Assembly (NCBI RefSeq): GCF_015732155.1
Contig: NZ_WIQK01000001.1
Coordinates: 468,501-532,500, forward strand
Source: Pectinatus sottacetonis
GTDB lineage: Bacteria; Bacillota; Negativicutes; Selenomonadales; Selenomonadaceae
DNA: 64,000 nucleotides
Reading direction: 5' to 3'
Made by a program: the position numbers and the translations under genes. Under the pieces are notes generated by a model that was not told the origin of the DNA, made no database searches, and saw nothing but the letters and a program-made list of their open reading frames with translations. Numbering within the stretch: position 1 is the stretch's first letter; the number at the start of each line of letters is the position of its first letter. Of the stretch, positions 1,477 through 24,783 are shown in pieces.

Positions 1477-1617
1477 GTTTTAGGTATTTCTATAAAAAAC
1501 CAAAGCAACAAACTGGAAATTCTTTACCCTATAAGCTTCAGTAGATGGGCCTAATTTTGAATTATGCGAGGGACAAATGAAATTTTAAATAAAATGTTTT
1601 TTAAAATGATAGAACAG

Positions 1618-1672: not shown

Positions 1673-1730
1673 GAATAATATTGAGTAAATTATTAGGCGT
1701 GCTATCCAAAAATTTCTTGGGGGCGTTGGT

Positions 1731-2723: not shown

Positions 2724-2726
2724 GTT

Positions 2727-5765: not shown

Positions 5766-5768
5766 ATC

Positions 5769-6893: not shown

Positions 6894-6915
6894 AAAAATT
6901 GAGGAGGGAAATGAT

Positions 6916-7140: not shown

Positions 7141-7186
7141 TTGAGATTGGTCGGAGTAATATTGCTGGATATTCGGGAGGATTGAC

Positions 7187-7774: not shown

Positions 7775-7791
7775 TTTTAAGGAGAAATTCC

Positions 7792-8406: not shown

Positions 8407-8510
8407 TTATGTCAAGGAGCCTAATGATCTAGACAAGCTGTTTTATCATCGAAAAAAGATCGCTTAGTTTAACCGCTTCGATTGAAAAATATTGAAAGAA
8501 GGTGCTGTTC

Positions 8511-8801: not shown

Positions 8802-8874
8802 AATATTGGTGTTTAATGGCATCTGGTTACCATGATGGTTAGCGATTTACCAAATAATAGAGGAGGGTACAGGA

Positions 8875-9450: not shown

Positions 9451-9588
9451 AAAATCAAACGGGAACAGCCATATATGAAAGATTCGGTCATTGGACTAAT
9501 TTAGTGATGAATGGTTGGTGGCCTAAGCTTTGATATGGTAGCCAACGTTTCATAGTTTTGTGGACAAAAATAAAAGGGGGAAATTTTA

Positions 9589-11220
9589 ATGAGTATGTTC
9601 TGTTATCAATGCCAGGAAACTGCAAAAGGCACGGGGTGTGAAGTCAGAGGAGTATGCGGCAAAACAGAAGAAGTAGCCAAACTTCAGGATCTACTGATTT
9701 ATACCCTGAAAGGCATTTCGGAAGTCGTTGTGAAAGGAAAACTTGACACCAAGGGATTGGGGAACATTAACCATGAGGTTATGAAGAGCTTGTTTATGAC
9801 AATTACGAACGCGAATTTTGATGCGGCTGCCTTTGAAGCAGAAATTAAAAAAATGCTTAAATTGAGAAATGAGTTACGGGCGAAAATTGCTGCTGGTCAA
9901 CTGCATGACGCCGCAACGTTTGAAGTTTCGTTAAAAGAAGCCATGGTGGAAAAAGCTGCTGCGGTCGGCGTGCTGGCAACACAGAACGAAGACGTGCGCT
10001 CCTTGCGGGAGCTGATTACCTATGGCTTGAAAGGATTGGCGGCATACGCTCATCACGCTCTCAATATCGGCAAAGAAAATGGTGAGCTTTACACTTTTAT
10101 TTATGAAGCCCTGGCGGCAACACTTAATGACGGACTTTCTGCTGACGAGTTGGTTGCTTTGACACTGAAAACAGGCGAATATGGTGTAAAAGCGATGGCA
10201 CTTCTGGACGAAGCTAATACTTCAAAGTATGGCAATCCTCAAATCACGGAAGTGAACATCGGTGTACGCAATAACCCTGCAATCCTAATATCTGGCCACG
10301 ACCTGACTGACCTGGAGCAACTGCTGGAACAGACAAAAGGCACAGGGGTCGATGTGTACACACATAGTGAGATGCTGCCGGCTCATTATTATCCTTTTTT
10401 CAAGAAATATGACAACCTCGTGGGGAACTACGGGAACGCTTGGTGGAAACAGGTGGGCGAGTTCGAAACTTTCAACGGCCCAATTCTGTTTACGACCAAT
10501 TGCATTGTTCCGCCTCGGAGCGAAGAAGTACAAACTCGGATATTCACAACCGGCGCTGCGGGCTACCCTGGCTGCCCGCATATCGTAGCAGATACGAGCG
10601 GCAAAAAAGATTTTTCGACGGTCATTGCGATGGCAAAAAAACTGAAGGCACCGACAGAAATTGAAACCGGTAAGATTGTTGGAGGATTTGCTCATGAGCA
10701 GGTCTTTGCCGTGGCGGACAAAGTTGTGGCTGCTGTGAAGTCAGGCGCGATTAAGAGATTCTTTGTAATGGCCGGTTGTGATGGTCGCATGAAGTCAAGG
10801 GAATATTACACCGAGTTTGCGACAAAACTGCCGAAAGACACGGTAATTCTGACTGCCGGTTGTGCAAAATATAGATACAACAAGCTAGCTTTAGGAGATA
10901 TTGGCGGTATTCCGCGCGTATTGGATGCAGGGCAATGCAATGACTCATATTCACTCGCTGTCATAGCACTAAAACTGAAAGAAGTCTTCGGCGTCGATGA
11001 TGTCAACAAACTACCTATTGCCTACAATATCGCTTGGTATGAGCAGAAAGCGGTTATTGTTCTATTGGCGTTGCTCTACCTCGGAGTGAAAAATATCCAT
11101 CTGGGGCCGACGTTGCCGGGATTCTTGTCACCCAATGTTGCAAAGGTCCTTGTTGAGACTTTTGGTATCGCGGGTATCGGAAGCGTAGACGACGATATCA
11201 AACTGTTCATGGGGGCCTAA
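9589..11220 (+). CDS. hcp: Hybrid cluster protein (hydroxylamine reductase / NO reductase)
   Basis: A 543-residue hybrid cluster protein. The N-terminus [19 protein letters not shown] shows the Cys-x2-Cys-x8-Cys-x5-Cys spacing of the anaerobic class, which holds a [4Fe-4S] cubane. The hybrid cluster ligands lie further on ([34 protein letters not shown]). The enzyme reduces hydroxylamine or NO in the cytoplasm and is normally induced under nitrosative stress. AAGGGGGAAA precedes the ATG. The 138 bases upstream contain no clear FNR-type palindrome. It is the last intact gene before the insertion sequence pile. Confidence 0.93.
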
Positions 11221-11263
11221 ATATTAAGAAGTAAACAGCCCTTATTAGCATTCGGATATTCAT

Positions 11264-12003
11264 ATGATACCCCTTAAGTAGACAAGGTAAATAACCAAAA
11301 TCTACTTAGGGGGTATTTTCATGCCTAGAAAATCCAAATATTCTATTGAACAACGAGTGCAAGCCTGCAAGGATTATCGCAGTGGCACACGTAGCTTAAA
11401 AGAAATATGTATTTCTCTTGGAACACCGAGGGAAAAGACAATTATGGAATGGTCTAAGAAATATGAAAAGTATGGAATAATGGCTTTTCAGGAACATTCA
11501 GGCAACAAAAGTTATACAAAAGAATTCAAACTTCGGGTAGTTGAAGAATATATCGCTGGTTTGGGTTCTTTACAAGATTTGATAATAAAATATGATATTT
11601 CTTCTTCACACCAGCTACGAGAATGGATTTCGTTGTATAATGCCAATAGAAAACTTAAGGACTACTGTCCGAAACGGGAGGTCTATATGGCAGAGGCGAG
11701 ATGAAAAACAACTATTGAAGAACGTAAGCAAATCGTTGAATACTGTTTAAATCACGAACGGAATTATAAAGATACAGCATCACTTTATGATGTGTCTTAT
11801 AGCCAGGTATATTCGTGGGTGAAGAAATACGATGCAGGTGGTGAAAACACATTATTTGATAAACGAGGACATCACAAAACAGACGATGAGGTTGATGAAC
11901 TTGAGCAACTTAGACGTGAAAACATCAGGCTAAAACGCCAACTTGAAGAAAAGGATATGCTAGCAGAACTGTTAAAAAAAGTGAAAGAATTCGAAAGGAT
12001 TTG
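11264..12003 (+). mobile_element. Truncated IS3-family (IS150-like) element
   Basis: Only the left end and most of orfA remain. Next to the left end is an inverted repeat, ATACCCCTTAAGTAGA against TCTACTTAGGGGGTAT (about 11266-11317), overlapping the orfA leader. The element stops at about 12003, where another IS3-type element begins; no orfB follows. It is therefore defunct. Confidence 0.6.
11321..12000 (+). pseudogene. IS150-like transposase OrfA with an internal stop
   Basis: ATG at 11321 opens a frame of 127 residues that ends at TGA (11702-11704). The same frame continues straight on with KTTIEERKQIVEYC, a second HTH domain (YSQVYSWVKKYDAGG) and a leucine-zipper-like tail (LEQLRRENIRLKRQLEEKDMLAELLKKVKEFER). 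Family members carry AEA-R-x-KTT without a stop, so TGA probably arose from CGA by one transition. Two or three helix-turn-helix units in series followed by a zipper are normal for this OrfA type. The end is cut by the next element. Confidence 0.75.
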
Positions 12004-12046
12004 CACTATAGTCAAGCAAGTGGACACAAATTCAGCTAATTTGTTA

Positions 12047-12722
12047 TCAAGCAGAAGCAGAAGATATTTGGCTGTCATAGGCAGCCTCAGCTTCATTGGG
12101 CGTCAAGTAGCCTAAGGCGCCATGAGGACGCTTAGGATTGTAGTAGCCTTCTATATATTCAAAGATCGAGCTTTTCAATTCTTCAAAAGTATGGTATGTC
12201 TTTCTGTTAGTTTCTTCTTTCTTCAGATATTTGAAGAAAGATTCACATACAGCGTTGTCAAAAGGGTAGCCTTTTTTAGAGAAAGACTGAACGACGTTCA
12301 AAGAGTCTAGTAGCTGCCGGAAAGCAAATGCAGTGTACTGGGAACCACGGTCTGAGTGGAACATCAGGCCGAATGGTGCATTCCTTTTTGCATAGGCTTT
12401 TTTAAATGTTTTCAGGACAAGGTCTACATCGGGTTTGCCGGAAAGATGCCAAGAAATTACTTTCCTTGAGAAAAGATCGATGATTATGCATAAGTAATAC
12501 CATTTGCCACCGGCTCTGATGTAGGTAAAGTCGCTGACCCAAGCAAGGTTAGGAGCTTTTTGCGTAAAGAGCTGTTTTAAATGATTCGGGCAGTCGTCCT
12601 CGTCTGCTGCAGCACGAACAAAAGAAGGCTTAACGGTAGACATTGGTGGTAGCTGCATGGTTTTCATCAGGCGGTACACTCTGCCAACGCTGATTTTGAT
12701 GCCATAATCACGCTCCAATACG
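12047..12722 (-). pseudogene. IS3 transposase OrfB, C-terminal part
   Basis: This encodes the larger part of the DDE integrase, from TYVLERDYGIKISVGRVYRLM to the end. WVSDFTYI holds the first Asp, FHSDRGSQYT the second, and DNAVCESFFKYLKKEE the Glu. The C-terminal PHGALGYLTPNEAE is typical. The first part of the protein is encoded some 4.2 kb away, beyond the IS4-type insertion. The 5' join falls in codons for TY (TTACATAC on the minus strand). Confidence 0.85.
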
Positions 12723-12861
12723 TATGTAACTCAAACTTCGCAGTTGTGAAACGGTCCATTAATTCTTAAATCAACTTTTTCAAAATAAAATAGCATAAGT
12801 CATCTCCGCTTTGTATAATGAAAGTGACAAAAATCCATAACACAAACGGAGGGCTTATGCC

Positions 12862-14030
12862 ATGAATATTGTAGCACATCATCATCGTTCCAGTGAACTT
12901 CTTTCTTCGAAAATCTCACATTTTCTTGAAGAATTCCATGTCAGCAAGATCCTCAGCTCCTGCAATGCATATAAAGTACGCGGATTTTCAGTAAAAACGG
13001 TATTTCAGGTTGCCTTTGAAAATGCATTCAGCAACAAATCGTTTTTTCAGAAGGAGAAAGAGACTTTGCCCTCTCTCCCCTTTGCCAAAGATACGTTTTA
13101 CCGTTTCATGAACTCCTGCAGTGTCAACTGGCGTAAGTTTACGCTTCAGCTGGGCTTTGCTGTTATCCATAAAATTGCTCCGCTTACGGATGAGAGTCGT
13201 CGCAATGTGCTCATAATCGATGATTCTCTTTTCAGCAGATCTCGTTCCAAGAAGGTTGAGCTGCTGGCAAAGGTCTATGACCATGTGGAGCACAAATATA
13301 CCAAAGGTTTCCGCATGCTGACGCTTGGATGGAGTGATGGTAATTCATTCCTTCCGCTCAGTCATTGCCTGCTTTCCTCTGCCAACCGTGAAAACCGTCT
13401 GCAGGAAGCGTCCGTTGGCGTTGATGCCAGGAGTAATGGCGGTAAGCAACGTAAGCTGGCACAGACTAAAGCAACCAGCGTACTCCAGACGCTTCTGAAA
13501 GAGGCGAAAGCAGTCGAAATTCCAGCTAAGTATGTTCTCTTTGACACCTGGTTCTGTTCGCCGATTTCGCTGATTCAAATCAAGGAAATCGGCTACGACG
13601 TTATTGCCATGGTCAAGAAATCGGAGACCATCCATTTCCGTTATAATGGCCGAATGCAAAGCGCGCCAGCTATCTTCCGTGCTGCTACGAAACGTCGTGG
13701 GCGTGCCAAGTTCCTGCTTTCTGTAGAAGTTGAAGCAGTAAAAGACTCAATGTCAACACCGGTGAAATTAGTCTTCGTAAGGAACAAGAATAACCGTCAG
13801 GAGTATCTCATCCTAGCTTCGACTGATGTCAATTTGTCAGAAGAAGAAATCATCCAGACTTATGGTAAGCGCTGGAACATTGAAGTCTTTTTCAAGATGT
13901 GCAAATCGTTCCTGAAGCTGGGGAAAGAAAACCGGACAATGTCTTATGATGCCATGACGGCTCATGTCTCCATTGTCTTTGCTCGCTACACGATGTTGTC
14001 GCTGGAGCAGCGCCGAAATGCAGATAAACG
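12862..14030 (+). pseudogene. IS4-type transposase, N-terminal part
   Basis: This covers about 389 residues up to the IS66 insertion. NVLIIDDSLFSRSRSKKVELL carries the first catalytic Asp, YVLFDTWFCS the second, and YGKRWNIEVFFKMCK fits the Y-x2-R-x3-E-x6-K (YREK) signature of the IS4 superfamily with the catalytic Glu. All catalytic residues are in this part. The last 67 or so residues lie at 16656-16860. A run-on reading adds only one or two residues after the break, so a truncated product could be made but probably would not work. Confidence 0.85.
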
Positions 14031-14104
14031 GTAAGCGGTAAATCATCTGGTGTTACCGGTAAATAAAATAAGCATAACCGGGATATCGGTCATGCTCAGG
14101 AAAC

Positions 14105-15676
14105 TTATTTGCAGTTTTTCTGTATTTCATCCGTCCAAGGAAGGACCGCATCCAGTTTTTCCGGATGTATTTTGAAATCCATGTTGGGAATTCGCTCAAA
14201 GAGATAGGTCAGGTAGCTGAATGGGGCAAGTCCATTGGCCTTGCAGGTTTCTACGATACTGTAGATAGCAGCACTGGCTGCTGCGCCTTTTGGCGATGCG
14301 CTGAAAAGCCAGTTTTTGCGGCCGATGGTAAAGTTGCGGATCGCACGCTCACAGATGTTGTTGGATAAAGCCACATTCCCATCTTTCAAGAAAACGCGCA
14401 AGCCTTCTTTATGGTTAAGAGTATAATTTACAGCCTTGCCCAGTGCCGATTTTGGCAATGTGCCAGGGCGGATGGTTTCCAGCCATGCAAAGAAAGCCTC
14501 CAGCTTGTTCTTTATAAGCCGCAGACGCTCTGCTTGCCGTGCTTCCGGGGTCTTGTCAGCCAGACCCTTATCCAAGGCAAAGAACTCGTTGATCCGTTGG
14601 ATGGCCTGTCCGCTGACGGAAGTGGCGGCATCCTCTTTTGTCAGCCCTGCAGGAATGGAATCCACAAAGTATCTGCGGGCATGTACCCAGCAAAGCGCGT
14701 GTTCCTTGCTGGAAATCTGCTCATAGCCGGCGTAACCGTCGGTCTGCAGGATGCCCTTATAATCCTTAAGGAACTCTCCTGCGAAGCTGCCGCTGCGTCC
14801 GGGATGATACTCGTAGATGCGAATCTGCTGCCCATCGGTCTGGAACTCGCCGTTGGTATACACCCACATATAAGACTTCGTCTTATTCTTACGGCCCTTC
14901 TCATGAAGGACTTGTACGGGGGTTTCGTCGGCATGGATAATGGGTTTCTCCAGCAGCAGACTATGCATACGGTCCACAAGAGGCATGAGCCAATCTTCTG
15001 CGGCACGGATGACCCAATTGGCCAGCGTTGCCCGGGGCAAAGCGAGCCCGATTGCTTTCCATTCTTGTTCCTGCCGGTAAAGAGGCATGGAGAACTGATA
15101 CTTTTGCGTGATAACATGAGCGACACTGGAAGGTGAGGCAATGGATTTGGCCAGCACCGGCTGCGGCATGACAGGCTTCTCAATGGAGAAATGCTCCTGC
15201 TTACGACACTCCAGGCATTGGAACGACGCACGGTAAAAGTCGATGACTTTCACCTGAGACGGAATGAACTGCACCTCCGTGCGGATCTTTTCCTTGCCCA
15301 TGGGGGTAAGCGGCGTACCGCAACGTTTACAGATGCGCACATCTTCCGGCAGCGTAATGAGGCGTTCCTCATGGGGCAGTTCCCTGAGCAGCTGCTCAAG
15401 ATGCCCTTTTTGTTTCTTGTGACGCTGATGTGCCGGCACGTCGATGACCGGTTCCGGAGCATTGACCCGGACCTCGATTTCAGCCTCATTGAAAAGATTC
15501 AGCTCTGCGGGATCACCGAGGACTTCCGTAGTCTTCTCTGTACGGCAGCCGAAAGCCATTTTCTTTAACTGGGCAAGTTGCTCCTTGAGATAACCTACCT
15601 CATGGTTCAGGTTCTCCTTTTCCAAGAGGAGACCATCTATGCGGTTCTGCATCTCTTGCTCGCGTTGGTCTGTCAT
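14105..15676 (-). CDS. tnpC: IS66 family transposase TnpC
   Basis: A DDE transposase of about 523 residues. It has an N-terminal coiled coil (EQEMQNRIDGLLLEKENLNHEVGYLKEQLAQLKK), then a zinc-finger domain (CKRCGTPL … CLECRK), the catalytic domain (IHADETPVQVLHEKGRKNKTKSYMWVY; LQTDGYAGY; NNICERAIRN) and the C-terminal tail TYLFERIPNMDF. ATG at 15676 is preferred over the longer frame from 15778 because GGAGG lies just before it. It would insert the element together with TnpA and TnpB. Confidence 0.9.
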   Translation of the reverse strand: MTDQREQEMQNRIDGLLLEKENLNHEVGYLKEQLAQLKKMAFGCRTEKTTEVLGDPAELNLFNEAEIEVRVNAPEPVIDVPAHQRHKKQKGHLEQLLRELPHEERLITLPEDVRICKRCGTPLTPMGKEKIRTEVQFIPSQVKVIDFYRASFQCLECRKQEHFSIEKPVMPQPVLAKSIASPSSVAHVITQKYQFSMPLYRQEQEWKAIGLALPRATLANWVIRAAEDWLMPLVDRMHSLLLEKPIIHADETPVQVLHEKGRKNKTKSYMWVYTNGEFQTDGQQIRIYEYHPGRSGSFAGEFLKDYKGILQTDGYAGYEQISSKEHALCWVHARRYFVDSIPAGLTKEDAATSVSGQAIQRINEFFALDKGLADKTPEARQAERLRLIKNKLEAFFAWLETIRPGTLPKSALGKAVNYTLNHKEGLRVFLKDGNVALSNNICERAIRNFTIGRKNWLFSASPKGAAASAAIYSIVETCKANGLAPFSYLTYLFERIPNMDFKIHPEKLDAVLPWTDEIQKNCK

Positions 15677-15783
15677 GAAAAGCCTCCTAAAATCTATGCT
15701 TCTATTATACTGCAAGAAAGCCAGCAAAGCCAGGAATAGCGAAGGCTGACTGTCCACAGATTTCGGTTCGTTATGCACAGATT

Positions 15784-16140
15784 TTAGAAATTATGGAGGG
15801 GATAAACCTTTTGCACAGCTTTTGACGGGGAGATGGATAAGCCTTCCGTCAGCCAGCGAAGCTGCTGCTCTGAGATTTCCCGCAAATCCTCCGGCTTGTC
15901 CGGCCATTGATACCGACCGTTTTCAAGGCGCTTGTATAAAAGCAGGAAGCCGGTTTCCTCCCACAGCAGGCCTTTGATGCGATCTTTGTGGCGGCCGCAA
16001 AAAAGGAATAGGAATGGCTGCTGTGGATCCAGCTTAAAGCGAGACAGAACCAAAGCAGCTAACCCGTCTATAGACTTACGCATATCCGTCCGACCGCAGG
16101 CAAGGTAAACATGATCTGCCGTGAGCGCATGGACTAGCAT
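15784..16140 (-). CDS. tnpB: IS66 accessory protein TnpB
   Basis: A 118-residue protein with the IS66 Orf2 pattern: VYLACGRTDMRKSIDGLAALV, then FLFCGRHKDRIKGLLWEETGFLLLYKRLENGRYQWP and the tail LRWLTEGLSI. It is required with TnpA for transposition in the family, but its biochemical role is unknown. ATG at 16140 overlaps the tnpA stop codon (ATGCTAG), giving translational coupling. It is unrelated to the RNA-guided TnpB at 56338, which shares only the name. Confidence 0.88.
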   Translation of the reverse strand: MLVHALTADHVYLACGRTDMRKSIDGLAALVLSRFKLDPQQPFLFLFCGRHKDRIKGLLWEETGFLLLYKRLENGRYQWPDKPEDLREISEQQLRWLTEGLSISPSKAVQKVYPLHNF

Positions 16141-16517
16141 ACTGGAAACACATCCTTGATGCATCGCAGCGTTTGTGTAAGTAATTGCCGTGACGTCGAC
16201 TCCGTGATTTCAAGTATGACAGGGCCGCAGGAAAGCTTTAGCATGGACGATTGTGATAACGCCGGAACCGTAGTGATGACAGCAGCCGTCGACAAGACGG
16301 CAAACCGGGGACCGGACGTTGTTTCCGCAGGAAGCTGCGGAACCACTTCCGCAAACTCCTTACGGATCTTGCGGAGCCAGTAATAAAAAGCGTTGTACTT
16401 GATATCCTGCTGCCGGCAATACTCAGTAGCAGGCAGGCCGCTTTGCTGCTGGGCGATGAGAATCTGTTTCCAGTATTTCATAGAATGCTGGTGCTTGATC
16501 TGTTGCATTTGAGTCAA
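16134..16517 (-). CDS. tnpA: IS66 accessory protein TnpA
   Basis: A protein of about 127 residues with an N-terminal helix-turn-helix (HSMKYWKQILIAQQQSGLPATEYCRQQDIKYNAFYYWLRKIR), probably the DNA-binding subunit of the IS66 transposition machinery. TTG at 16517 lies 7 bases after GGGGAGG; an ATG at 16508 is the alternative. It overlaps tnpB by 7 bases. Confidence 0.83.
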   Translation of the reverse strand: MTQMQQIKHQHSMKYWKQILIAQQQSGLPATEYCRQQDIKYNAFYYWLRKIRKEFAEVVPQLPAETTSGPRFAVLSTAAVITTVPALSQSSMLKLSCGPVILEITESTSRQLLTQTLRCIKDVFPVC

Positions 16518-16655
16518 AAGAAAACCTCCCCAATGAGATGACAAAAATGACTGAAATGGCTTTTTCAGCTTTTTTGTGTGACTTATTTAAGTCTATTATC
16601 TCACTTGGGAGGCGTGGATTAAATACACCGTATTATTGTGCGCTTACGATAAACG

Positions 16656-16860
16656 CAGCATTGGTGATCTGTTTTTTGCCTCGTATGATGAGCTGCAAGA
16701 TTTACGTTATATGGACGCGTTGCTATTGATTTTGAAAAAATTCATTGACAGGATAAAGGAACGAATGCTTTTCATGGAAAAAGAACTGGATGAGATGCTT
16801 AATTCTTTCTTAGAAAAACTGCCACTCTTATGGCACAACTGTTTGAAACACCGTGCATGA
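16656..16860 (+). pseudogene. IS4-type transposase, C-terminal part
   Basis: This continues the reading of 12862-14030 after removal of the IS66 element and one copy of GATAAACG: NADK-R-SIGDLFFASYDELQDLRYMDALLLILKKFIDRIKERM…WHNCLKHRA, ending at TGA 16858-16860. The clean rejoining of the frame confirms the insertion history. Confidence 0.85.
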
Positions 16861-16933
16861 TGTTGGCATTTAAGGAGTCACATTCCCTTGCTGTGCATTA
16901 TTGCAGGCTTGTTTGGGATGTGCGAAGTTTGAG

Positions 16934-17150
16934 TATGTAATCTTGTAAGCACCGAGTCTTTTCTTGTAGTCAGCGTAGATGTGGAGTATGTAGGATTTAA
17001 TGATCTGGTTTTCCAGACTTCGGGGTGCCGGAGCAGAATGGAAGTGCTTGTAGTATGTACTGCGGTTTACACGCAGGACTTTGCACAGGATTTTGATGTT
17101 GTGTTGGAATCTGAGCTTATGAACGGCGACTAGTCGTTCTTTGAGTGTGG
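16934..17150 (-). pseudogene. IS3 transposase OrfB, N-terminal part
   Basis: The minus strand reads KERLVAVHKLRFQHNIKILCKVLRVNRSTYYKHF… to DYKKRLGAYKITY, where the IS4-type element interrupts it. It is the HTH_21-like N-terminal part of OrfB and normally would be translated by a -1 frameshift from orfA. The segment is too short and broken to make an active enzyme. Confidence 0.75.
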
Positions 17151-17414
17151 CGTGAAGATGGCAATCGCTTTTTTTAGTATGACATTTTCTTCTTCAAGCT
17201 GGGCGTTGCGTTTCTGCAGGTCTTTAATCTGTCTGGCGGAGAGAATTTCGCCATCTTCAGTCTTAACCGTGGAATACTGTTTAATCCATTTGGCCAAGGC
17301 CGATTGGGAAATACCGTATTCCTTGCACAGGGACGTCTGAGTTTTACCATTGTTAAACAGGGACACAACAGACTTTTTGAATTCTTCGTCATAACGTGTT
17401 GATTTGTCAGCCAT
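17130..17414 (-). CDS. IS3 transposase OrfA
   Basis: A 94-residue protein with an HTH_Tnp_1 domain (RYDEEFKKSVVSLFNNGKTQTSLCKEYGISQSALAKWIKQY) followed by a leucine zipper (DLQKRNAQLEEENVILKKAIAIF). Its end overlaps the start of orfB as usual for IS3. It is intact, but the partner OrfB is destroyed, so the element cannot move by itself. Confidence 0.87.
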   Translation of the reverse strand: MADKSTRYDEEFKKSVVSLFNNGKTQTSLCKEYGISQSALAKWIKQYSTVKTEDGEILSARQIKDLQKRNAQLEEENVILKKAIAIFTPHSKND

Positions 17415-17482: not shown

Positions 17483-17674
17483 TATAGATCCAAGAGCGAG
17501 CTGACTGTATTGAAGAAAACCTCACAGATGCAGACGGACTTATTGCAGGGTGCCAACGCATCCTTGAAAACGTACGCGTCCGAGGAGAAGAAAAAAATGC
17601 AGGCAATTAAGAATCAGAGGAATGTAGCCTACGGAGTTGGAGCGGTTTTACTATATGCTTTAGTTAGGAAATAG
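17483..17674 (+). pseudogene. 3' remnant of a phage-like gene beside the IS3 end
   Basis: Downstream of the IS3 end a frame is open to TAG at 17672: SKSELTVLKKTSQMQTDLLQGANASLK… ending in GVGAVLLYALVRK. It is helical with a hydrophobic C-terminal segment and starts without an ATG directly at the IS boundary. The beginning of the gene was probably lost with the IS insertion. No family recognised. Confidence 0.45.
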
Positions 17675-17744
17675 AATAGATAATTTGATGCCCACTGAGG
17701 ATGAATTTTCTTGGTGGGTTTATTTTTTTTATTTATATTTTTTC

Positions 17745-17795
17745 AAAACCGTCAGATTTACTTCTTTTTCAAGGCTATTAGGTAGAGGGTCAAAA
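17745..17795 (+). ncRNA. Structured RNA element, copy 1 (possible DUF2800 motif)
   Basis: The sequence AACCGTCAGATT is followed by a hairpin with the loop AAGGCTATTA. The stem (ACTTCTTTTTC against GGTAGAGGGT) pairs with several G-U pairs. The same conserved lead sequence and loop recur at 22873-22920 with a much stronger stem. A motif upstream of DUF2800 genes has been described as 'DUF2800 RNA'; assignment to it is inferred. It lies 27 bases before the gene at 17822. Confidence 0.5.
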
Positions 17796-17821
17796 AACAC
17801 TCTCGGAAAGAGGGGATAAAG

Positions 17822-18019
17822 ATGGAACACAATTTGAGAATCAGTGTATCCAAGAAACAAAAATCAGATGGTATTCTTTCTTGCCGCAGTATTAGTGTAC
17901 GAGAACGTATTCTATGCTTCTTCCTCGGAAGAAAACAGAAACTCACAATTCTTGTACCCGGTGACAACGTGGAAGAAGTTTCCATTTGTACGGTTAAGGA
18001 AGGAGGTGCGACATCGTGA
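17822..18019 (+). CDS. Small phage-like hypothetical protein
   Basis: A 65-residue protein with predicted beta strands (RISVSKKQKSDGILSCRSISVRERILCFFLGRKQKLTILVPGDNVEEVSICTV). It has no known domain. It follows RNA element copy 1 and overlaps the next gene by 4 bases (GTGA), so it looks like the first gene of the phage replication operon. The start ATG follows AGAGGGGATAAAG. Confidence 0.6.
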   Translation: MEHNLRISVSKKQKSDGILSCRSISVRERILCFFLGRKQKLTILVPGDNVEEVSICTVKEGGATS

Positions 18020-18378
18020 GTAAAGTAAGCGAATTATCCATGCTCGTGGATGAACTCAAAAAGTGCGGCGAAACCTTGGTACGTATTTCCGAAGAACTGG
18101 CTGATTTGTTCAGCAGTGGAAAGGACGCAATGCAGCCTGTAAAAAAGACTGCTGTTAAGAAGAAAACCAACGAGGAGCCAAAAGCTGAAGCGCCGGAAGA
18201 AAAAGCACTCACGTTGGAAGATGTCAGAGCCGTGTGTGCGGATAAATCCCGCAAAGGCTATACGGCAGAAGTCAAAGCAATCCTTACAAAGCATGGTGCA
18301 GAAAAGCTGTCCGGGATAAATCCAGCAGAATATAAGGCACTGCTTGCTGAAGTGGAGGTACTTGGGAATGCCCAATAA
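18016..18378 (+). CDS. Phage protein with Lys/Glu-rich linker ('rrp5-like')
   Basis: A 120-residue protein starting with GTG behind AAGGAGG. It has an N-terminal helical segment (ELSMLVDELKKCGETLVRISEELADLF), a charged linker and a C-terminal small helical domain (LTLEDVRAVCADKSRKGYTAEVKAILTKHGAEKLSGINPAEYKALLAEVEVL). This C-terminal part is common in clostridial phages next to DUF2800 genes, where it is sometimes mislabelled as rRNA biogenesis protein rrp5. It may bind DNA or partner proteins; function unknown. It overlaps the next gene by 11 bases. Confidence 0.65.
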   Translation: MSKVSELSMLVDELKKCGETLVRISEELADLFSSGKDAMQPVKKTAVKKKTNEEPKAEAPEEKALTLEDVRAVCADKSRKGYTAEVKAILTKHGAEKLSGINPAEYKALLAEVEVLGNAQ

Positions 18379-19540
18379 ACAGAAGGTGAATTGTACTGTA
18401 GGTGCAAGAGAGACCGGTCTGGACCACGCAGTCTTATCAGCATCCTCCAGTCACAGGTGGCTGGAGTGTCCGCCATCGGCATTGCAGTGTGCTAAGGTCG
18501 GTGACACCACAAGCGAGTTTGCAATGCAGGGCACCGATGCCCACAGCCTTTGCGAACACAAACTGAAAACAGCACTGGGGCAGAAATCGAAAGATCCAAC
18601 AGAAAACCTTACTTTCTTCGATGAAGAAATGGCGGACTGCTCGGATATGTATGCCCAGTATGTGATGGAGCAGCTTGCTGTGGCAAAAGAAAAATGCAAA
18701 GACCCTATTGTTCTAATTGAACAGCATCTTGATTTTTCCAAATGGGTGCCGCAGGGCTTCGGCACCGGGGACTGCGTGATTGTTGCAGATGAAACGCTGA
18801 CCGTCATTGATTTTAAATACGGTGTCGGCATTCTGGTAGAAGCAGAAAAGAATCCGCAGATGATGTGCTACGCACTGGGAGCCTTACAACTGTTTGACGG
18901 TATCTATGATATTGATTCGGTGACCATGACTATCTTCCAGCCAAGGCGGGATAGTGTCAGCACATACACCATTTCCAAAGAAGAACTTCTGAAATGGGCG
19001 GATGAAGTGCTGAGTCCAACAGCACAGCTGGCGGCAATAGGCGAGGGCGAATACAAAGCCGGAAACCACTGTCAGTTCTGCAAAGTAAAAGCCACCTGCC
19101 GTAAGAGAGCCGAATACAACCTTGAACTTGCACGTTACGATTTTGAGATGCCTTCCACCCTTGAAGATGATGAGATAGAGGCCATTCTTTCAAAAGTTGA
19201 TGCACTGGTATCTTGGGCAGGCGATATCAAGGAATACGCATTGCAGCAGGCAGTCAGCGGCAAGGAGTGGAATGACTGGAAGATTGTCGAAGGACGCTCC
19301 AACAGGAAATATGTTAATGAAACCGCTGTGGTAGATACGGTTAAGGGTGCCGGTTATGACCCATACGAATACAAGGTTCTGGGTGTTACGGCAATGACCA
19401 AACTGCTCGGCAAGACAAGATTTGAAGAACTGCTCTCCGGTTTTATCGAAAAACCGCAGGGCAAGCCAACCTTAGTACCTATGTCGGACAAGCGTCCAGC
19501 AATGAATACAGCAGCAAACGATTTTAAGGAGGACAAATAA
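18368..19540 (+). CDS. DUF2800 protein, RecB/Cas4-like phage nuclease
   Basis: A 390-residue protein of the DUF2800 family. The N-terminus HAVLSASSSHRWLECPPSA resembles the entry of Cas4/RecB nucleases. Acidic residues and a lysine follow in FGTGDCVIVADETLTVIDFKYGVG, the D…E-x-K-like core. A late cysteine cluster (CQFCKVKATCRKRAEY) could hold an iron-sulfur cluster together with the first Cys. It is probably an exonuclease for phage DNA replication or recombination, paired with the DUF2815 protein that follows. ATG at 18368 is preferred, with GGAGGT in front. Confidence 0.8.
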   Translation: MPNKQKVNCTVGARETGLDHAVLSASSSHRWLECPPSALQCAKVGDTTSEFAMQGTDAHSLCEHKLKTALGQKSKDPTENLTFFDEEMADCSDMYAQYVMEQLAVAKEKCKDPIVLIEQHLDFSKWVPQGFGTGDCVIVADETLTVIDFKYGVGILVEAEKNPQMMCYALGALQLFDGIYDIDSVTMTIFQPRRDSVSTYTISKEELLKWADEVLSPTAQLAAIGEGEYKAGNHCQFCKVKATCRKRAEYNLELARYDFEMPSTLEDDEIEAILSKVDALVSWAGDIKEYALQQAVSGKEWNDWKIVEGRSNRKYVNETAVVDTVKGAGYDPYEYKVLGVTAMTKLLGKTRFEELLSGFIEKPQGKPTLVPMSDKRPAMNTAANDFKEDK

Positions 19541-19541
19541 T

Positions 19542-20108
19542 ATGTCAAAGAATTATACCAACCCTACCAAGGTAATCACAGGAGTAAAAACACGCTGGTC
19601 TTATGCAAATGTGTGGGATGCAAAATCCATCAACGGCGGCACACCTAAGTTCAGCGTGAGCCTTATCATTCCAAAGGACGATACTGCAACGGTCAACAAA
19701 ATCAAGGCAGCCATCCAGTCTGCTTACGAGGAAGGCCAGTCCAAGCTGAAGGGCAATGGCAAGACAGTGCCTGCACTTTCTGTACTTAAGACTCCGCTTC
19801 GTGACGGTGATCTGGAAAGGCCCGATGATGAAGCCTACGCGAACAGCTACTTCATCAATGCCAACAGTGCATCTGCACCTGGTATCGTGGATGCAGACCG
19901 TCAGCCTATCATCGACCGCAGCGAGGTATACAGCGGTGTGTATGGCCGTGCATCCATCAATTTCTATGCCTTCAATTCCAACGGAAATAAGGGTATCGCC
20001 TGTGGCCTTAATAATCTGCAGAAAATCAAGGATGGTGAGCCGCTTGGTGGCAAGAGCCGTGCCGAGGACGATTTTGCCACTGAAGACGATGAAGATTTTC
20101 TCTCTTAA
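19542..20108 (+). CDS. DUF2815 protein, probable single-strand DNA binding protein
   Basis: A 188-residue protein with the family opening NPTKVITGVKTRWSYANVWDAKSINGGTPKFSVSLIIPK and the acidic tail DDFATEDDEDFLS. The OB-fold-like beta pattern and acidic tail fit phage single-strand binding proteins. It starts one base after the DUF2800 stop, as in many clostridial phages. The pair would act in phage recombination or replication. Confidence 0.8.
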   Translation: MSKNYTNPTKVITGVKTRWSYANVWDAKSINGGTPKFSVSLIIPKDDTATVNKIKAAIQSAYEEGQSKLKGNGKTVPALSVLKTPLRDGDLERPDDEAYANSYFINANSASAPGIVDADRQPIIDRSEVYSGVYGRASINFYAFNSNGNKGIACGLNNLQKIKDGEPLGGKSRAEDDFATEDDEDFLS

Positions 20109-20183
20109 GAAAATGCAGTGACAATCAATGCAGGCGGTGGGAAACTGCTGTCTGCAGATATTATGAAAATGTGAGGTAAACAG

Positions 20184-20366
20184 ATGGATTTATATGAATT
20201 TGCAAAGCAGTTTGATGTGATTGTGATTTTTGTGGTGCTGTACGGCTTTGGTATCGGCAGCTTGGTATATTGGATTATGGATTTCCTGCACTGGTGCTTT
20301 AAGAAATGGAAACTGCACAGGGAAAAGAAAAAGGCAGCAGTCAAAGCAGAACAGAATAATCAGTAA
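20184..20366 (+). CDS. Small membrane protein
   Basis: A 60-residue protein with one or two hydrophobic helices (VIVIFVVLYGFGIGSLVYWIMDFLHWCF) followed by a strongly basic tail (KKWKLHREKKKAAVKAEQ). No known family. It stands between phage replication genes and has a usable ribosome binding site (GTGAGGTAAACAG). Confidence 0.55.
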   Translation: MDLYEFAKQFDVIVIFVVLYGFGIGSLVYWIMDFLHWCFKKWKLHREKKKAAVKAEQNNQ

Positions 20367-20427
20367 ACAGCGGGCGGTGGAGGTGTATTCTTCGCCGCCT
20401 TGCTTATCGTAAGGACGGTGACAACAT

Positions 20428-20952
20428 ATGACAGATGAAATATGGAAAGATATCCCCGGTTACGAAGGGAAATATCAGGCAAGCAATATGGGGAGAATCA
20501 AAAGTTTAGCCCGTATTGTTACGAGTAAAAACCAGTATGGTGATTTTGAATGGCGTACCAAGGAAACTATATTATCGCCTGGAAAAAGAGACTCCTATGG
20601 TCATTTGTCGGTGGTGCTTCATGACCATCACAGAAAATCATATGGCATCCATCAGTTGGTAATGCTCGCCTTTTGTGGTGAACCGCCTATGGGTATGGAA
20701 GTATGCCATAACAATTGCAACGGCTCAGATAATCACCTTGAAAACCTAAGATACGATACCCGCACTGAAAATATGATAGACGCATATAAAAACGGCAAGG
20801 GCAAGAGTGTGCTTTCCTTGGATGATATTGACGCCATCCGATTTGGTCTTGCCTGCGGAATAAGCTTCCGTGAACTGGGTCAAATGTATGGGGTGTGCCA
20901 CCAAACTATAAGCAAAATAAAAAGAAGGGAGCATTATTCGTGGATGAAATAA
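20428..20952 (+). CDS. HNH homing-type endonuclease with NUMOD4 domain
   Basis: A 174-residue protein. The N-terminal NUMOD4 motif is EIWKDIPGYEGKYQASNMGRIKSL, the HNH core is HQLVMLAFCGEPPMGMEVCHNNCNGSDNHLENLRY, and a C-terminal helix-turn-helix reads GISFRELGQMYGVCHQTISKIKRR. The order is typical of phage free-standing homing endonucleases that insert next to DNA polymerase genes. It overlaps the polymerase gene by 13 bases. An HNH metal site is formed by the His-Asn-His pattern. Confidence 0.85.
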   Translation: MTDEIWKDIPGYEGKYQASNMGRIKSLARIVTSKNQYGDFEWRTKETILSPGKRDSYGHLSVVLHDHHRKSYGIHQLVMLAFCGEPPMGMEVCHNNCNGSDNHLENLRYDTRTENMIDAYKNGKGKSVLSLDDIDAIRFGLACGISFRELGQMYGVCHQTISKIKRREHYSWMK

Positions 20953-22871
20953 AAATTTTAAGCATCGATATTGAAACACGCAGCAACATCGATTTGGCGA
21001 AGTGCGGCGTGTATAAATACTGTGACACAGATAGATTTGATATTTTGCTGTTTGCATACTCCGTTAATTATGGTGCGGTAAAGGTTATCGATCTGGCAAA
21101 TGGAGAAAAGATTCCACAGGATATTTTGAATGCACTTGAGGATGAAACTGTCATAAAAACCGCGTATAACAGTCAGTTTGAGAGAATCTGTCTCTCTCGA
21201 TACACCGGATATCCTATTGGAGAGTACTTATCTCCAAATTCATGGAATTGCACGATGGTTTGGGCATCCACGCTGGGCTTGCCTAAATCACTCGCGGGTG
21301 TAGGATCTGTACTGGGCCTTGAAAAACAAAAAATGACCGAAGGAAAGGATCTTATCAAGTTTTTTTGTGTGCCAAACAAATCTGGTGAATTTAATGATCC
21401 TGTAGACCACCTTGAAAAATGGTCAGCTTTCAAGAACTATAATAAGCGTGATGTTGAGGTTGAACTGCAAATACAGCAACGACTAATCCGTTATCCTGTC
21501 CCGGAATTCCTATGGGGAGAGTTCTATCGAAGTGAGGAAATAAATGATAGAGGAATTCTTATAGATCGCACGCTGGTAAAAAATGCTTTAACAATGGCTG
21601 AGAAGTCAAACGCAGAGCTTATCGACAAGTTGAAGGAATTAACCGGACTTGAAAACCCAAACAGTGTACCGCAGATTAAAGGTTGGTTGTCTCAACAGGG
21701 ACTTACTATGGATTCGCTCGGCAAAAAAGAAGTTGCCAAAGCTGTTAAAAGCACAGAGGGAACGCTCAAAGAAGTGCTTGCCTTAAGGCAGAAAAGTTCC
21801 AAATCATCTGTAAAAAAGTATGTGGCGATGGAGAATTGTATGTGCTCAGATGACCGTGCCAGAGGAATGTTTGGCTTTTATTCTGCAAACCGAACTGGAC
21901 GCTGGTCTGGGAAATATATACAGCTGCAAAATCTCCCTCAGAACCATATGCCGGATTTAGAACAGGCGCGAGGTCTGGTGGAGTCCGGCAATTATGATGC
22001 GATAGAGCTTCTATATGATGATATCCCGGATACCCTGTCACAGCTTATCCGCACAGCCTTTGTGCCAAGAGCTGGGATGAAGTTTGTGGTGGCGGACTTT
22101 TCTGCCATCGAAGCAAGGGTGCTTTCCTATCTTGCCAAGGAAAGCTGGCGAACAGCTGTCTTTGCAGATAACGGGGACATCTATTGTGCATCAGCATCCG
22201 CTATGTTTGGTGTTCCTGTGGAAAAGCACGGTGTTAATGGATATCTCCGTCAAAAGGGTAAAATCGCTGAATTGGCTCTCGGCTACGGCGGTTCTGTCGG
22301 TGCTCTAAAAGCGATGGGTGCTTTGGATATGGGACTTGAGGAAGAAGAACTTCAGCCACTTGTGGATTCATGGAGAGCCGCCAACCCAAACATTGTGCGT
22401 TTTTGGTGGGATGTTGACCGCTGTGTAAAGAATACGGTCAAAAACAGAGTGACCACGGAAACACATGGCATTCGCTTTTTCTACCAGAGCGGAATGCTGT
22501 TCATTCAGCTGCCAAGCGGCAGATGGCTTTCCTATGTGAAACCACGTATGGGAGAGAACCGTTTCGGCGGTGAGGCTGTGACCTATGAAGGTGTGGGTGG
22601 TACAAAGAAATGGGAACGCATCGAAAGCTATGGACCCAAGTTTGTGGAAAATATCGTGCAGGCAATCAGCAGGGATATTTTGGCTCATTCCATGCGAACG
22701 CTGTCGCACTTTTTTGTTTGCGGTCATGTTCATGATGAACTGATTATCGAGTGCAGCATGGGAGTTTCCCTTTATGCTGTGTGTGAACAAATGGGCAGGA
22801 CTCCGCATTGGATTTCCGGGCTTCTTCTCCGTGCGGATGGATACGAATGCAGCTTCTATAAAAAAGATTAG
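20940..22871 (+). CDS. Phage-type family A DNA polymerase
   Basis: A 643-residue DNA polymerase I-like enzyme. The exonuclease domain starts with LSIDIETRSNIDL (the DxE motif). Polymerase motif A is VVADFSAIEARVLSYLAKE, motif B RQKGKIAELALGYGGSVGAL and motif C CGHVHDELIIE. A 5' nuclease domain is absent, as in phage enzymes. GTG at 20940 is chosen as start since GAAGGGA stands before it and the longer frame overlaps the HNH gene deeply. It would replicate the mobile element DNA. Confidence 0.9.
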   Translation: MDEIKILSIDIETRSNIDLAKCGVYKYCDTDRFDILLFAYSVNYGAVKVIDLANGEKIPQDILNALEDETVIKTAYNSQFERICLSRYTGYPIGEYLSPNSWNCTMVWASTLGLPKSLAGVGSVLGLEKQKMTEGKDLIKFFCVPNKSGEFNDPVDHLEKWSAFKNYNKRDVEVELQIQQRLIRYPVPEFLWGEFYRSEEINDRGILIDRTLVKNALTMAEKSNAELIDKLKELTGLENPNSVPQIKGWLSQQGLTMDSLGKKEVAKAVKSTEGTLKEVLALRQKSSKSSVKKYVAMENCMCSDDRARGMFGFYSANRTGRWSGKYIQLQNLPQNHMPDLEQARGLVESGNYDAIELLYDDIPDTLSQLIRTAFVPRAGMKFVVADFSAIEARVLSYLAKESWRTAVFADNGDIYCASASAMFGVPVEKHGVNGYLRQKGKIAELALGYGGSVGALKAMGALDMGLEEEELQPLVDSWRAANPNIVRFWWDVDRCVKNTVKNRVTTETHGIRFFYQSGMLFIQLPSGRWLSYVKPRMGENRFGGEAVTYEGVGGTKKWERIESYGPKFVENIVQAISRDILAHSMRTLSHFFVCGHVHDELIIECSMGVSLYAVCEQMGRTPHWISGLLLRADGYECSFYKKD

Positions 22872-22872
22872 G

Positions 22873-22920
22873 AAACCGTCAGATTGCACCTCCTGCCAAG
22901 GCTATAAGGTAGGAGGTGCT
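22873..22920 (+). ncRNA. Structured RNA element, copy 2, covering a ribosome binding site
   Basis: The lead sequence AACCGTCAGATT is followed by a 12-pair hairpin: GCACCTCCTGCC (22886-22897) pairs with GGTAGGAGGTGC (22908-22919) around the loop AAGGCTATAA. The 3' arm contains the AGGAGG that serves the ATG at 22927, so the hairpin would block translation when formed. The lead and loop match copy 1 at 17745 while the stem differs, which is evidence for RNA structure. It is probably the DUF2800 RNA motif or a relative. Confidence 0.6.
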
Positions 22921-22926
22921 TTTCTA

Positions 22927-23160
22927 ATGAATGATGAGAATAAAACAGTAACGAAAATTACAGAGCCGGACAGTTTACCTGTCCTTATGAAATCACGCAT
23001 GACGGAGGAACAGCTGTGCGGTGATTATAAATATTGTATGGCACAGAAAATGACAAAAGCATTGCTTGATAAGGACCTGATTTCTGTGGATGAATTCAAC
23101 AAAATCAGCGAAAGAAACCGCCAAGCTTTCTCTCCATATTTAGCTGAAATTATGCCATAA
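22927..23160 (+). CDS. Small SHOCT-like protein of recombinase modules
   Basis: A 77-residue protein containing MTEEQLCGDYKYCMAQKMTKALLDKDLISVDEFNKISERNRQAFSPYLAEIM. The short 'helix - LLDKDLISVDEFNKI' part resembles SHOCT domains, and such genes commonly precede serine recombinase modules in clostridial elements. Its ribosome binding site lies in the 3' arm of the hairpin at 22886-22919. Role unknown, perhaps a recombination directionality or control factor. Confidence 0.6.
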   Translation: MNDENKTVTKITEPDSLPVLMKSRMTEEQLCGDYKYCMAQKMTKALLDKDLISVDEFNKISERNRQAFSPYLAEIMP

Positions 23161-23220: not shown

Positions 23221-24783
23221 ATGAAAAGGATAACAAAAATTGAAGAAAATAATGCCTTATCGGTTAAGACGAAAACCCGTGTTGCTGCCTATTGCAGAGT
23301 GTCCACGGCAAGCGATGAACAGCTTATCAGCCTTGATACGCAGAAAGCACATTATGAGGATTATATCAAATCCAATAGCGAGTGGGAGTACGCAGGGGTA
23401 TTTTTTGATGAAGGTATTACTGGCACCAAAAAGGAGTGTCGTGACGGTCTGAATTCCCTGATTGATTCCTGCGAAAAAGGTCTTGTGGACTTGGTCATTA
23501 CAAAGTCCATCAGCCGATTCAGCAGAAATACAACAGACTGTTTGGAACTGGTAAGAAAGCTGATGGCGCTAAATGTGACCGTGATTTTCGAGAAAGAAAA
23601 TATTAACACGGATACGATGGAAAGTGAATTGATGCTTTCCATATTAAGCAGTCTTGCGGAAAGCGAGTCGGTGTCCATTTCTGAAAACAATAAATGGTCA
23701 ATACAAAAACGCTTTCAGAATGGCACCTACATTATTTCCTATCCGCCTTATGGTTATGAAAATGCCGGCGGAGAAATGATTGTTGTGCCGGAGCAGGCAG
23801 AGGTTGTCAAAAAGATATTTGAAGATACGCTTGCCGGGAAAAGTACCCATGCCGTTGCAAAGGAACTGAATGACAGCGGTGTGAGAAGCAAGAAAGGCGG
23901 AAAATGGACTCCCGGAGCAATCAATGCGATTATTCGCAATGAGAAGTTTACGGGAGATGTTATTTTTCAAAAGACCTACACCGACAGTCAGTTTAGCCGC
24001 CACACCAATGATGGCGAGTTAAATAAATATCTGTGTGAAAATCATCATGAGCCGATTGTAAGCCACGAAATTTTTGAAAAGGCAAATGAGGTCCTGAATC
24101 AGCGTGGCAAGGAAAAAGGCAATGGAGAGCGAACCGAACGCTATCAGAATCGTTATGGCTTCTCAGGCAGAATCAAGTGCGGAGAGTGCGGCGGAGTCTT
24201 TAAAAGAAGAATCCACTATAAGCCCAGCGGAAGTTACATTGCTTGGTGCTGCACCCATCATATCGAGGACAGGAACTCCTGTTCCATGAAGTACATTACG
24301 GATGATGGCATAAAGACGGCGTTCCTTACTATGATGAATAAACTGATATTTGCCCATCAGATGATATTAAAGCCACTGCTTCACAGCCTGCAGGGATTTG
24401 ATGATAAGGATAGGCTTCTACAGATACAGGAATATGAAACTAAACTGGAAAAGAATATGGAGAAAAGGCAGGTGCTGACGAGCCTTATGGCAGGCGGACT
24501 ATTAGAGCCAGCACTTTTTAGCAAGGAAAACAATGCTTTGATTTTGGAAGAAAAGCATTTGCAGGAAGAAAAGAAACAAATGATAAATTCCGTCAGCGGT
24601 GACAGGACAAAGATTGAAGCCTTGGAGACACTTATAAAATTTGCATCCGGCAGTGAGATGCTGACGGAATATTCGGATGAGATATTCCTTTCCTATGTAG
24701 AAGGGATTATCGTGCTTTCAAGAGAAAAAATCGTCTTTGAACTGAAGTGTGGACTGAAATTAAAGGAAAGGTTGGTGGGATAA
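23221..24783 (+). CDS. Large serine recombinase (first)
   Basis: A site-specific recombinase of about 520 residues. The resolvase domain starts at [15 protein letters not shown] with the catalytic Ser, and carries further active-site arginines (SISRFSRNT). A recombinase domain follows (PPYGYENAGGEMIVVPEQAEVVKKIFEDTLAGKSTHAVAKELN), then a zinc ribbon (CGECGGVFKRRI … CCTHH) and a coiled coil. It would integrate and excise the element. ATG at 23221 is chosen after GAGGTGAG; a TTG three bases upstream is possible. The stop overlaps the next gene. Confidence 0.88.
   Translation: MKRITKIEENNALSVKTKTRVAAYCRVSTASDEQLISLDTQKAHYEDYIKSNSEWEYAGVFFDEGITGTKKECRDGLNSLIDSCEKGLVDLVITKSISRFSRNTTDCLELVRKLMALNVTVIFEKENINTDTMESELMLSILSSLAESESVSISENNKWSIQKRFQNGTYIISYPPYGYENAGGEMIVVPEQAEVVKKIFEDTLAGKSTHAVAKELNDSGVRSKKGGKWTPGAINAIIRNEKFTGDVIFQKTYTDSQFSRHTNDGELNKYLCENHHEPIVSHEIFEKANEVLNQRGKEKGNGERTERYQNRYGFSGRIKCGECGGVFKRRIHYKPSGSYIAWCCTHHIEDRNSCSMKYITDDGIKTAFLTMMNKLIFAHQMILKPLLHSLQGFDDKDRLLQIQEYETKLEKNMEKRQVLTSLMAGGLLEPALFSKENNALILEEKHLQEEKKQMINSVSGDRTKIEALETLIKFASGSEMLTEYSDEIFLSYVEGIIVLSREKIVFELKCGLKLKERLVG

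What the first reader, a model, noticed from the sequence alone, without database searches (positions are those of the whole stretch)
17745..22920. Two copies of a conserved hairpin RNA in the phage module, one covering a ribosome binding site
AACCGTCAGATT followed by a stem with the loop AAGGCTAT(A/T)A occurs at 17745 and 22873. The stems differ in sequence but both pair, which is the signature of selection on structure. In the second copy the 3' arm contains the AGGAGG of the next gene. A bioinformatically found 'DUF2800 RNA motif' is known upstream of genes like the one at 18368; this may be it, or a new relative with a protein or RNA ligand.
Basis: partly seen in the sequence, partly recalled or inferred. 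Interest (0 to 1): 0.65.

Follow-up and report, generated by a model that had tools for sequence, protein, structure and literature searches.

The report
Promoters of a phage sigma factor
The two repeated elements are most likely start sites for transcription that a prophage's own sigma-factor-like protein switches on, not a new ligand-binding RNA; at the second one a hairpin should also keep transcripts that run in from upstream from being translated, and the same system recurs in many gut phages.

Summary
The repeated motif is real but is not mainly an RNA structure. Its common core, in phages and prophages of Streptococcus, Ruminococcus, Erysipelothrix, Acidaminococcus and others, is two boxes, CGTCAG(ATT) and GGCTA(Y), 17 bp apart: bacterial -35/-10 geometry. 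The prophage has a third copy outside the window, overlapping the stop codon of a gene whose C-terminal half matches sigma-70 region 4. The sites precede the antirepressor-primase genes, the DUF2800-polymerase genes and the gene after the polymerase. Five -35 variants occur. They agree between sites about 4-41 kb apart in one phage (one exception among the records compared) and track the recognition helix of that phage's sigma-like protein, while GGCTA stays fixed (partial Mantel 0.65, 0 of 5000 permutations; 26 proteins). In a comparison set, 8 of 8 records with a strong sigma-like match had variant sites, against 1 of 27 without. I therefore read both elements as promoters of a phage sigma-factor-like protein. 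Copy 2 is also a 12-bp hairpin closing the Shine-Dalgarno of the next gene, but only in read-through RNA; RNA started at the promoter would lack the 5' arm, as at T4 gene e. Copy 1 does not form the claimed stem. There are no transcript data, and sigma region 2 was not found.

The parts
17690..17729 (+). intrinsic-terminator-like hairpin and T run just upstream of site L
   Evidence: 12 pairs, 5 GC; 1 found, 0.1 expected in shuffles
17747..17758 (+). site L (copy 1), -35-like box AACCGTCAGATT (CGTCAG at 17750-17755)
17773..17778 (+). site L, -10-like box GGCTAT, 17 bp after CGTCAG; predicted start near 17785
   Evidence: start point inferred
17785..17804 (+). possible 5'-terminal leader hairpin GAGGGT (17785-17790) with ACTCTC (17799-17804)
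   Evidence: segments 2:3 in 19 representative leaders: own -9.23 v swapped -8.26 kcal/mol, 11 of 5000 permutations
17822..18019 (+). first gene after site L, 65 aa, phrog_7234, unknown function
18016..18378 (+). 120 aa gene, phrog_408, unknown function
18368..19540 (+). DUF2800 / PD-(D/E)XK exonuclease-like gene
19542..20108 (+). ssDNA-binding protein gene (Enc34_ssDNA-bd, Gp2.5-like)
20940..22871 (+). family A DNA polymerase gene
22874..22885 (+). site P (copy 2), -35-like box AACCGTCAGATT (CGTCAG at 22877-22882)
22900..22905 (+). site P, -10-like box GGCTAT; predicted start near 22912
   Evidence: start point inferred
22886..22919 (+). 12-bp hairpin of read-through RNA; 5' arm in the promoter spacer, 3' arm with Shine-Dalgarno AGGAGG 22911-22916
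22927..23160 (+). gene after site P, 77 aa, SHOCT_2 domain, phrog_2996
23221..24783 (+). serine recombinase downstream of site P

Best explanation
Both elements are promoters of one small phage regulon. A phage protein with a sigma-70 region 4 (phrog_11138; here locus L342:3808-4356 = contig C1:458808-459356, about 9 kb left of the window) recognises the -35-like box CGTCAGATT; RNA polymerase then starts about 7 nt after the -10-like box GGCTAY. Three such promoters precede the antirepressor-primase genes (site A, overlapping the stop codon of the sigma-like gene), the exonuclease-ssDNA-binding-polymerase genes (site L, copy 1) and the gene after the polymerase (site P, copy 2). At site P the promoter spacer is also the anti-Shine-Dalgarno arm of a hairpin: RNA that runs in from the polymerase gene carries the whole hairpin and should not be translated there; RNA started at P begins inside the hairpin, lacks the 5' arm and should be translated. 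Shown from sequence: the boxes, the fixed spacing, the three sites in this genome, linkage to the sigma-like gene, covariation of the -35 box with the recognition helix, the hairpin at P. Inferred: promoter activity, start points, direction of regulation.
For: (1) In 159 loci fetched by protein homology or as annotated phage regions (L047-L126, L247-L325), TCAG(A/G)-to-GGCTA distances peak at 21 nt (= 17-bp spacer): 69 forward cases, 0-9 at every other distance from 8 to 44; 2 at that distance on the reverse strand. (2) PWM scan of complete or near-complete phages: strong sites, all with spacer 17, are 3 in Javan630 (whole), 3 in 50 of 53.6 kb of NatCom_38182, 1 in 50 of 64.4 kb of phage 15682261, 0 in 50 of 59.2 kb of NatCom_28274 (which carries the TCCAAT variant), 2 in the window. 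(3) Pattern TC-N19-GGCTA-N5-YRGRRRG: 41 of 42 records hit (1 site in 8, 2 in 13, 3 in 18, 4 in 2); own genome exactly 3; reversed control 0 in all 42. (4) Gene just upstream of the A position: Sigma70_r4_2 in 4 of 4 phages. In records chosen because no TCAGA-type site had been seen in their loci, 8 of 8 with a strong match (E<1e-20, one record already known to carry sites set aside) have variant sites, against 1 of the other 27. (5) -35 variants TCAGA, TCCAAT, TCCTTTT, TCAACT, TCAAGT agree within phages and with recognition helices NNITQK-like, TVYKR, TVSHRY-like, AISHR, AVSHR (31 records). Partial Mantel, C-terminal identity v -35 similarity given N-terminal identity: 0.65, 0 of 5000; N-terminal given C-terminal: -0.23, 5000 of 5000 (26 nonredundant proteins). 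(6) C-terminal half resembles sigma region 4. (7) Site P: mean Shine-Dalgarno accessibility 0.67 from the predicted start, 0.05 in read-through RNA, 0.22 with shuffled spacer; 47 of 51 below their shuffled mean, 38 of 51 at rank <=0.05. (8) No sigma-A-type consensus match within 17600-17860 or 22700-22960.
Against: No RNA-seq, start-site or biochemical data. Sigma region 2, expected to read the -10 box, was not found: profile and fold matches cover the C-terminal half, the model is weak in the N-terminal half (mean pLDDT 71.1, pTM 0.40), Foldseek gave no match at E<=0.001 and KorA, another helix-turn-helix protein, ranks among the sigma hits. Exceptions: G195 has a TCAGA-type protein and site A but TCCAAT at L and P; G189 has an unusual helix with ordinary TCAGA sites. 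G210, G213, G251 (2 sites each) and G217 (1) show sites without a family match; G212 (2 sites) has only a weak match to a different-looking protein. The family profile also rings at E<=0.01 in 10 of 14 control genomes and weakly in 17 of the 27 comparison records, so only strong matches count. Insulation is not shown for L and A: 81 sites, own start 0.53, read-through 0.27, shuffled spacer 0.30, 11 at rank <=0.05. Sites and proteins share ancestry, which the permutation tests do not fully remove.
Confidence: 0.78

Rival explanations
1. An RNA-level regulon: a phage protein (perhaps the same region-4 protein, or another) binds RNA at TCAGAUU and GGCUA and opens or closes the anti-Shine-Dalgarno arm between them, at all three leaders.
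For: The stretch between the boxes is pyrimidine-rich and can pair with the Shine-Dalgarno; segments 1:4 of leaders pair better than swapped ones (own -10.74 v -9.61 kcal/mol, 70 of 5000 permutations); site P hairpin.
Against: Several sites lack complementary arms (for example L163, L336, L240); spacing is fixed at 17 bp whatever the fold; the covarying protein carries a fold whose solved relatives bind -35 DNA.
Confidence: 0.1
2. The upstream box is a DNA operator for a helix-turn-helix activator or repressor, with transcription by the host sigma factor from another start.
For: Region 4-like domains also occur in activators; region 2 was not found.
Against: No sigma-A consensus near either copy; GGCTA at a fixed 17 bp is as conserved as the upstream box.
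Confidence: 0.09
3. A member or relative of a known Rfam leader (DUF2800 RNA motif) or a small-molecule riboswitch.
For: Copy 1 lies upstream of a DUF2800 gene; copy 2 closes a Shine-Dalgarno.
Against: No Rfam match; copy 1 has no stem; no significant covariation in the copy-2 stem; the upstream box changes in step with a protein.
Confidence: 0.02
4. Ordinary translational coupling: the copy-2 hairpin only makes translation of the SHOCT gene depend on ribosomes finishing the polymerase gene.
For: The hairpin follows the polymerase stop codon by a few bases.
Against: Explains neither the boxes nor the sites without hairpins nor sites L and A.
Confidence: 0.01

Closest known systems
T4 gene e (lysozyme), soc, 49 and I-TevI leaders (passages of PMC3014915 section 29)
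   Same: For gene e, late promoters lie in the stretch that encodes the 5' strand of an RNA structure closing the ribosome binding site; longer early RNAs are poorly translated, promoter-started RNAs lack the strand and are well translated. Site P has the same layout.
   Different: Other promoter and other phages; here only predicted, and specific complementarity is shown only for site P; the gene behind it is a SHOCT gene before recombinases, not a lysis gene.
Phage 7-11 SaPh711_gp47 and phiEco32 gp36 sigma factors (passages of PMC8948821)
   Same: A phage-encoded sigma-like protein with its own small promoter set; the 7-11 promoters are bipartite, GTAAtg-(16)-aCTA, with starts 6-9 bp from the element.
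   Different: Other boxes and spacer; promoters of middle or late genes; the passages seen describe no -35 variants that track region 4.
ECF sigma factors, region 4 (PDB 5fgm SigR region 4; 2h27 SigE region 4 with -35 DNA)
   Same: C-terminal fold (5fgm: Foldseek probability 1.00, TM 0.79 of target, E 0.079; VIA Z 8.5, rmsd 2.5, 65 aligned) and Sigma70_r4_2 profile.
   Different: N-terminal half not recognisable as region 2; nearly all profile scores lie below the curated cut-offs.
Candidatus Heliusviridae gut phages (PMC9226167, passages)
   Same: Shared genes DUF2800, DUF2815, DNA polymerase I, VRR-NUC and SNF2-like helicase; four phage records opened here are labelled Ca. Heliusvirales.
   Different: In the held main text 'promoter' has 0 occurrences and 'sigma' 1, a supplier's name.

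Membership tests
sigma-70 family sigma factor | region 4 (-35 reading helix-turn-helix) | tested here: met
   Sigma70_r4_2 in 4 of 4 proteins, E 7.5e-4 to 3.2e-9, one of them over Pfam's cut-off; region 4 among the best fold matches, though weak by E-value
sigma-70 family sigma factor | region 2 (core binding, -10 reading) | tested here: inconclusive
   no match to it; N-terminal half of the model of low confidence
sigma-70 family sigma factor | directs core RNA polymerase to a cognate promoter | not testable with these tools
   only box-helix covariation
sigma-type promoter | two boxes with a spacer of about 17 bp | tested here: met
sigma-type promoter | transcription start a few nt after the -10 box | not testable with these tools
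   no transcript data
T4 gene e-type insulated promoter | promoter spacer encodes the strand that closes the ribosome binding site in longer RNAs, at site P | tested here: met
   prediction only: 51 sites; copy 2
T4 gene e-type insulated promoter | the same at sites L and A | tested here: inconclusive
   81 sites, 0.27 v 0.30 with shuffled spacer, 11 at rank <=0.05
   over the 4227 families of the copy; the DUF2800 accession was not identified (RF02954 and RF02953 are DUF3577 and DUF1874)

The most novel reading that the evidence does not exclude
A widespread group of gut prophages carries a sigma factor whose N-terminal half reads an invariant, non-canonical -10 box (GGCTAY) through an unrecognised fold, while its region 4 is exchanged by recombination together with the -35 boxes of the phage's promoters. 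This would make a natural set of separate sigma/promoter pairs, with one promoter built into a translation-blocking hairpin so that only sigma-started transcripts are translated.
Probability: 0.4. Interest if true: 0.75.

Novelty: new variant of a known kind. Interest (0 to 1): 0.62.

Why it matters
It would give a specific, testable control circuit to a common group of gut phages whose regulation is not described in the papers I could search (open-licence papers only), put a function on phrog_11138 ('unknown function'), and supply natural pairs of region 4 and -35 box for asking how sigma specificity changes. It would also show the T4 gene e layout, a promoter inside the hairpin it defeats, in unrelated phages. 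It warns against reading conserved hairpins over a ribosome binding site as riboswitches before promoter geometry is checked.

Tried and rejected
Hairpin RNA as the common principle: rejected because copy 1 has no local stem and several sites have no complementary arms. Covariation in the copy-2 stem: not significant. Four-segment attenuator for leaders: in 19 L representatives pairings 2:3 and 1:4 beat swapped ones (11 and 70 of 5000) but 1:2 and 3:4 do not; in 7 A representatives none does; and the accessibility test against shuffled spacers does not support specific insulation at L and A. Rfam: no match. Guessing the Rfam DUF2800 accession failed. Order-level genome search: 3 of 189 genomes matched, only the own genome convincingly. 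Phylum-level search: 8 of 398 genomes matched, 4 of them (G000, G346, G423, G448) with sites that look genuine, the other 4 with one chance-like match each; reversed control 1. PDB profile search: two hits only, E 0.04-0.08, to an unrelated stretch. Sigma region 2 absent from fold matches. No paper found on these promoters (searches give listings only). Models for RNA (build_rna_model) were not built.
Full report
What was claimed and what is there. The two 12-mers are exact and sit at 17747 and 22874; the joint motif is found twice in the genome and not at all in reversed form. Copy 2 is a strong 12-bp hairpin that includes the Shine-Dalgarno of the 77-aa gene at 22927. Copy 1 is not a hairpin of that kind. 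No Rfam family fits.

Relatives. Similarity searches found the element in Streptococcus, Ruminococcus and Erysipelothrix phages, in IMG/VR contigs and in Acidaminococcus and other Bacillota genomes. Three settings recur: L, at the head of the DUF2800-ssDNA-binding-polymerase genes and here right behind a terminator-like hairpin; P, between the polymerase gene and the next gene; A, before an antirepressor. I classed 46 distinct fragments as P, 12 as A and 40 as L; 28 of the 126 fragments with the right distance were left out as other or unclear.

The invariant is spacing, not stem. In 159 loci fetched by protein homology or as annotated phage regions the distance from TCAG to GGCTA is 21 nt in 69 forward cases, with 0-9 cases at every other distance tested. 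That is CGTCAG, 17 bp, GGCTAY. Javan630 (whole record) has exactly three strong sites, NatCom_38182 three in the 50 kb scanned, phage 15682261 one in 50 kb (also one in the whole record with the generic pattern), and NatCom_28274 none of this type but three of a variant type.

The sigma-like gene. The gene just upstream of the A position scores as sigma-70 region 4 in four of four phages, although PHROGs calls its family (phrog_11138) unknown. The own genome has it, intact, 182 aa, at C1:458808-459356; the third site of the genome overlaps its stop codon and the antirepressor gene follows. Of 36 records chosen mostly for carrying the motif, 27 match the family at E<=0.01; two of these matches are weak (G200, G212) and the G212 protein looks different. 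Of the nine misses, five are contigs of 9-27 kb, one (G207) proved to have no site, and three (G210, G213, G217) have sites and no match.

A prediction tested. The second set of 36 records had been picked because no TCAGA-type site had been seen in their loci; 26 match the family at E<=0.01 but only nine strongly, one of which (G194) was already known to carry sites. The other eight all proved to have sites with a different -35 box; of the remaining 27 only one did. The variant boxes TCCAAT, TCCTTTT, TCAACT and TCAAGT agree among the sites of one phage, about 4-41 kb apart, except in G195. They agree with the recognition helix of that phage's protein with the same exception, while G189 shows an unusual helix with the common box. 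The C-terminal half of the protein, not the N-terminal half, carries the association (partial correlations 0.65 and -0.23; 0.69 and -0.22 without G195). Pairs such as G203/G256 (N 0.54, C 0.20 identity) and NatCom_38182/G240 (N 0.58, C 0.32) have related N-terminal halves, different C-terminal halves and different -35 types, as domain exchange would leave them. This test used boxes at sites other than the one overlapping the gene.

Structure. AlphaFold gives mean pLDDT 71.1, with the C-terminal half at about 80-90. Foldseek's best matches to it are sigma region 4 domains and KorA, none at E<=0.001; VIA-align puts sigma region 4 chains on top, Z 8-9.5 over residues 95-182. No region 2 is seen. 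The protein may be a full sigma factor with a diverged N-terminal half, or a region-4 adaptor with an unknown partner.

How it probably works. The phage protein starts transcription at A, L and P. At P the polymerase genes are transcribed from L straight into the site, so read-through RNA is expected; there the spacer is complementary to the Shine-Dalgarno far beyond what its composition gives (accessibility 0.05 against 0.22 for shuffled spacers and 0.67 for promoter-started RNA; 38 of 51 sites at rank <=0.05). For copy 2 itself the three values are 0.00, 0.29 and 0.83. At L and A the same comparison gives no specific effect on average. The logic at P is that of T4 gene e. One A-position site, in NatCom_38182, instead carries a perfect terminator-like repeat of which the promoter-started RNA would lack the 5' arm (sequence; my reading, not tested).

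Spread. In 398 genomes of the phylum four, the own one included, have sites that look genuine, one of them (G346) again with exactly three, about 30 and 4.3 kb apart.

Limits. Everything rests on sequence. Start points are predicted from spacing alone; regulation in time is unknown; relatedness inflates permutation results; records were chosen by me and are not a random sample.

Noticed in passing
window 153-17414 with L342: Between the primase/methyltransferase part of the prophage (L342) and site L the window holds chromosomal-looking genes (HlyD-like, two ABC ATPases, two permeases, TetR-like, Hcp-like) and several transposase genes, so the structural phage genes seem to be missing and the prophage rearranged. 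Read from ORF translations, not family-tested.
   Followed up: no
window 39561-41353 (-): Group II intron pieces (RF02001, RF01998, RF00029) over the gathering score.
   Followed up: no
G254, G255, G256: Two promoter-like sites in tandem, 81, 81 and 84 bp apart, at the head of the L operon.
   Followed up: no
L338:37567 (-): A-position site of NatCom_38182 with GCCGAGGCTA...TAGCCTCGGC-AAATTTTTT: a terminator-like repeat that only read-through RNA would carry whole.
   Followed up: partly
L100:3905, L101:6508: Sites of the same type followed by a strong hairpin and U run instead of a nearby Shine-Dalgarno; the downstream gene was not examined.
   Followed up: no
L342:4341-4358; L374 and relatives: The stop codon of the sigma-like gene lies inside the promoter: the -35 box encodes ...NRQI-stop in most TCAGA phages, and in TCAACT phages the tail ...CHG-stop runs through the -10 box.
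   Followed up: partly
L372 and L240: Sigma-like proteins with an insertion of about 16 residues before the recognition helix, which itself keeps NNITQK.
   Followed up: no
L048/L339:36391-38330: The DNA polymerase of phage Javan630 is annotated as two adjacent genes.
   Followed up: no
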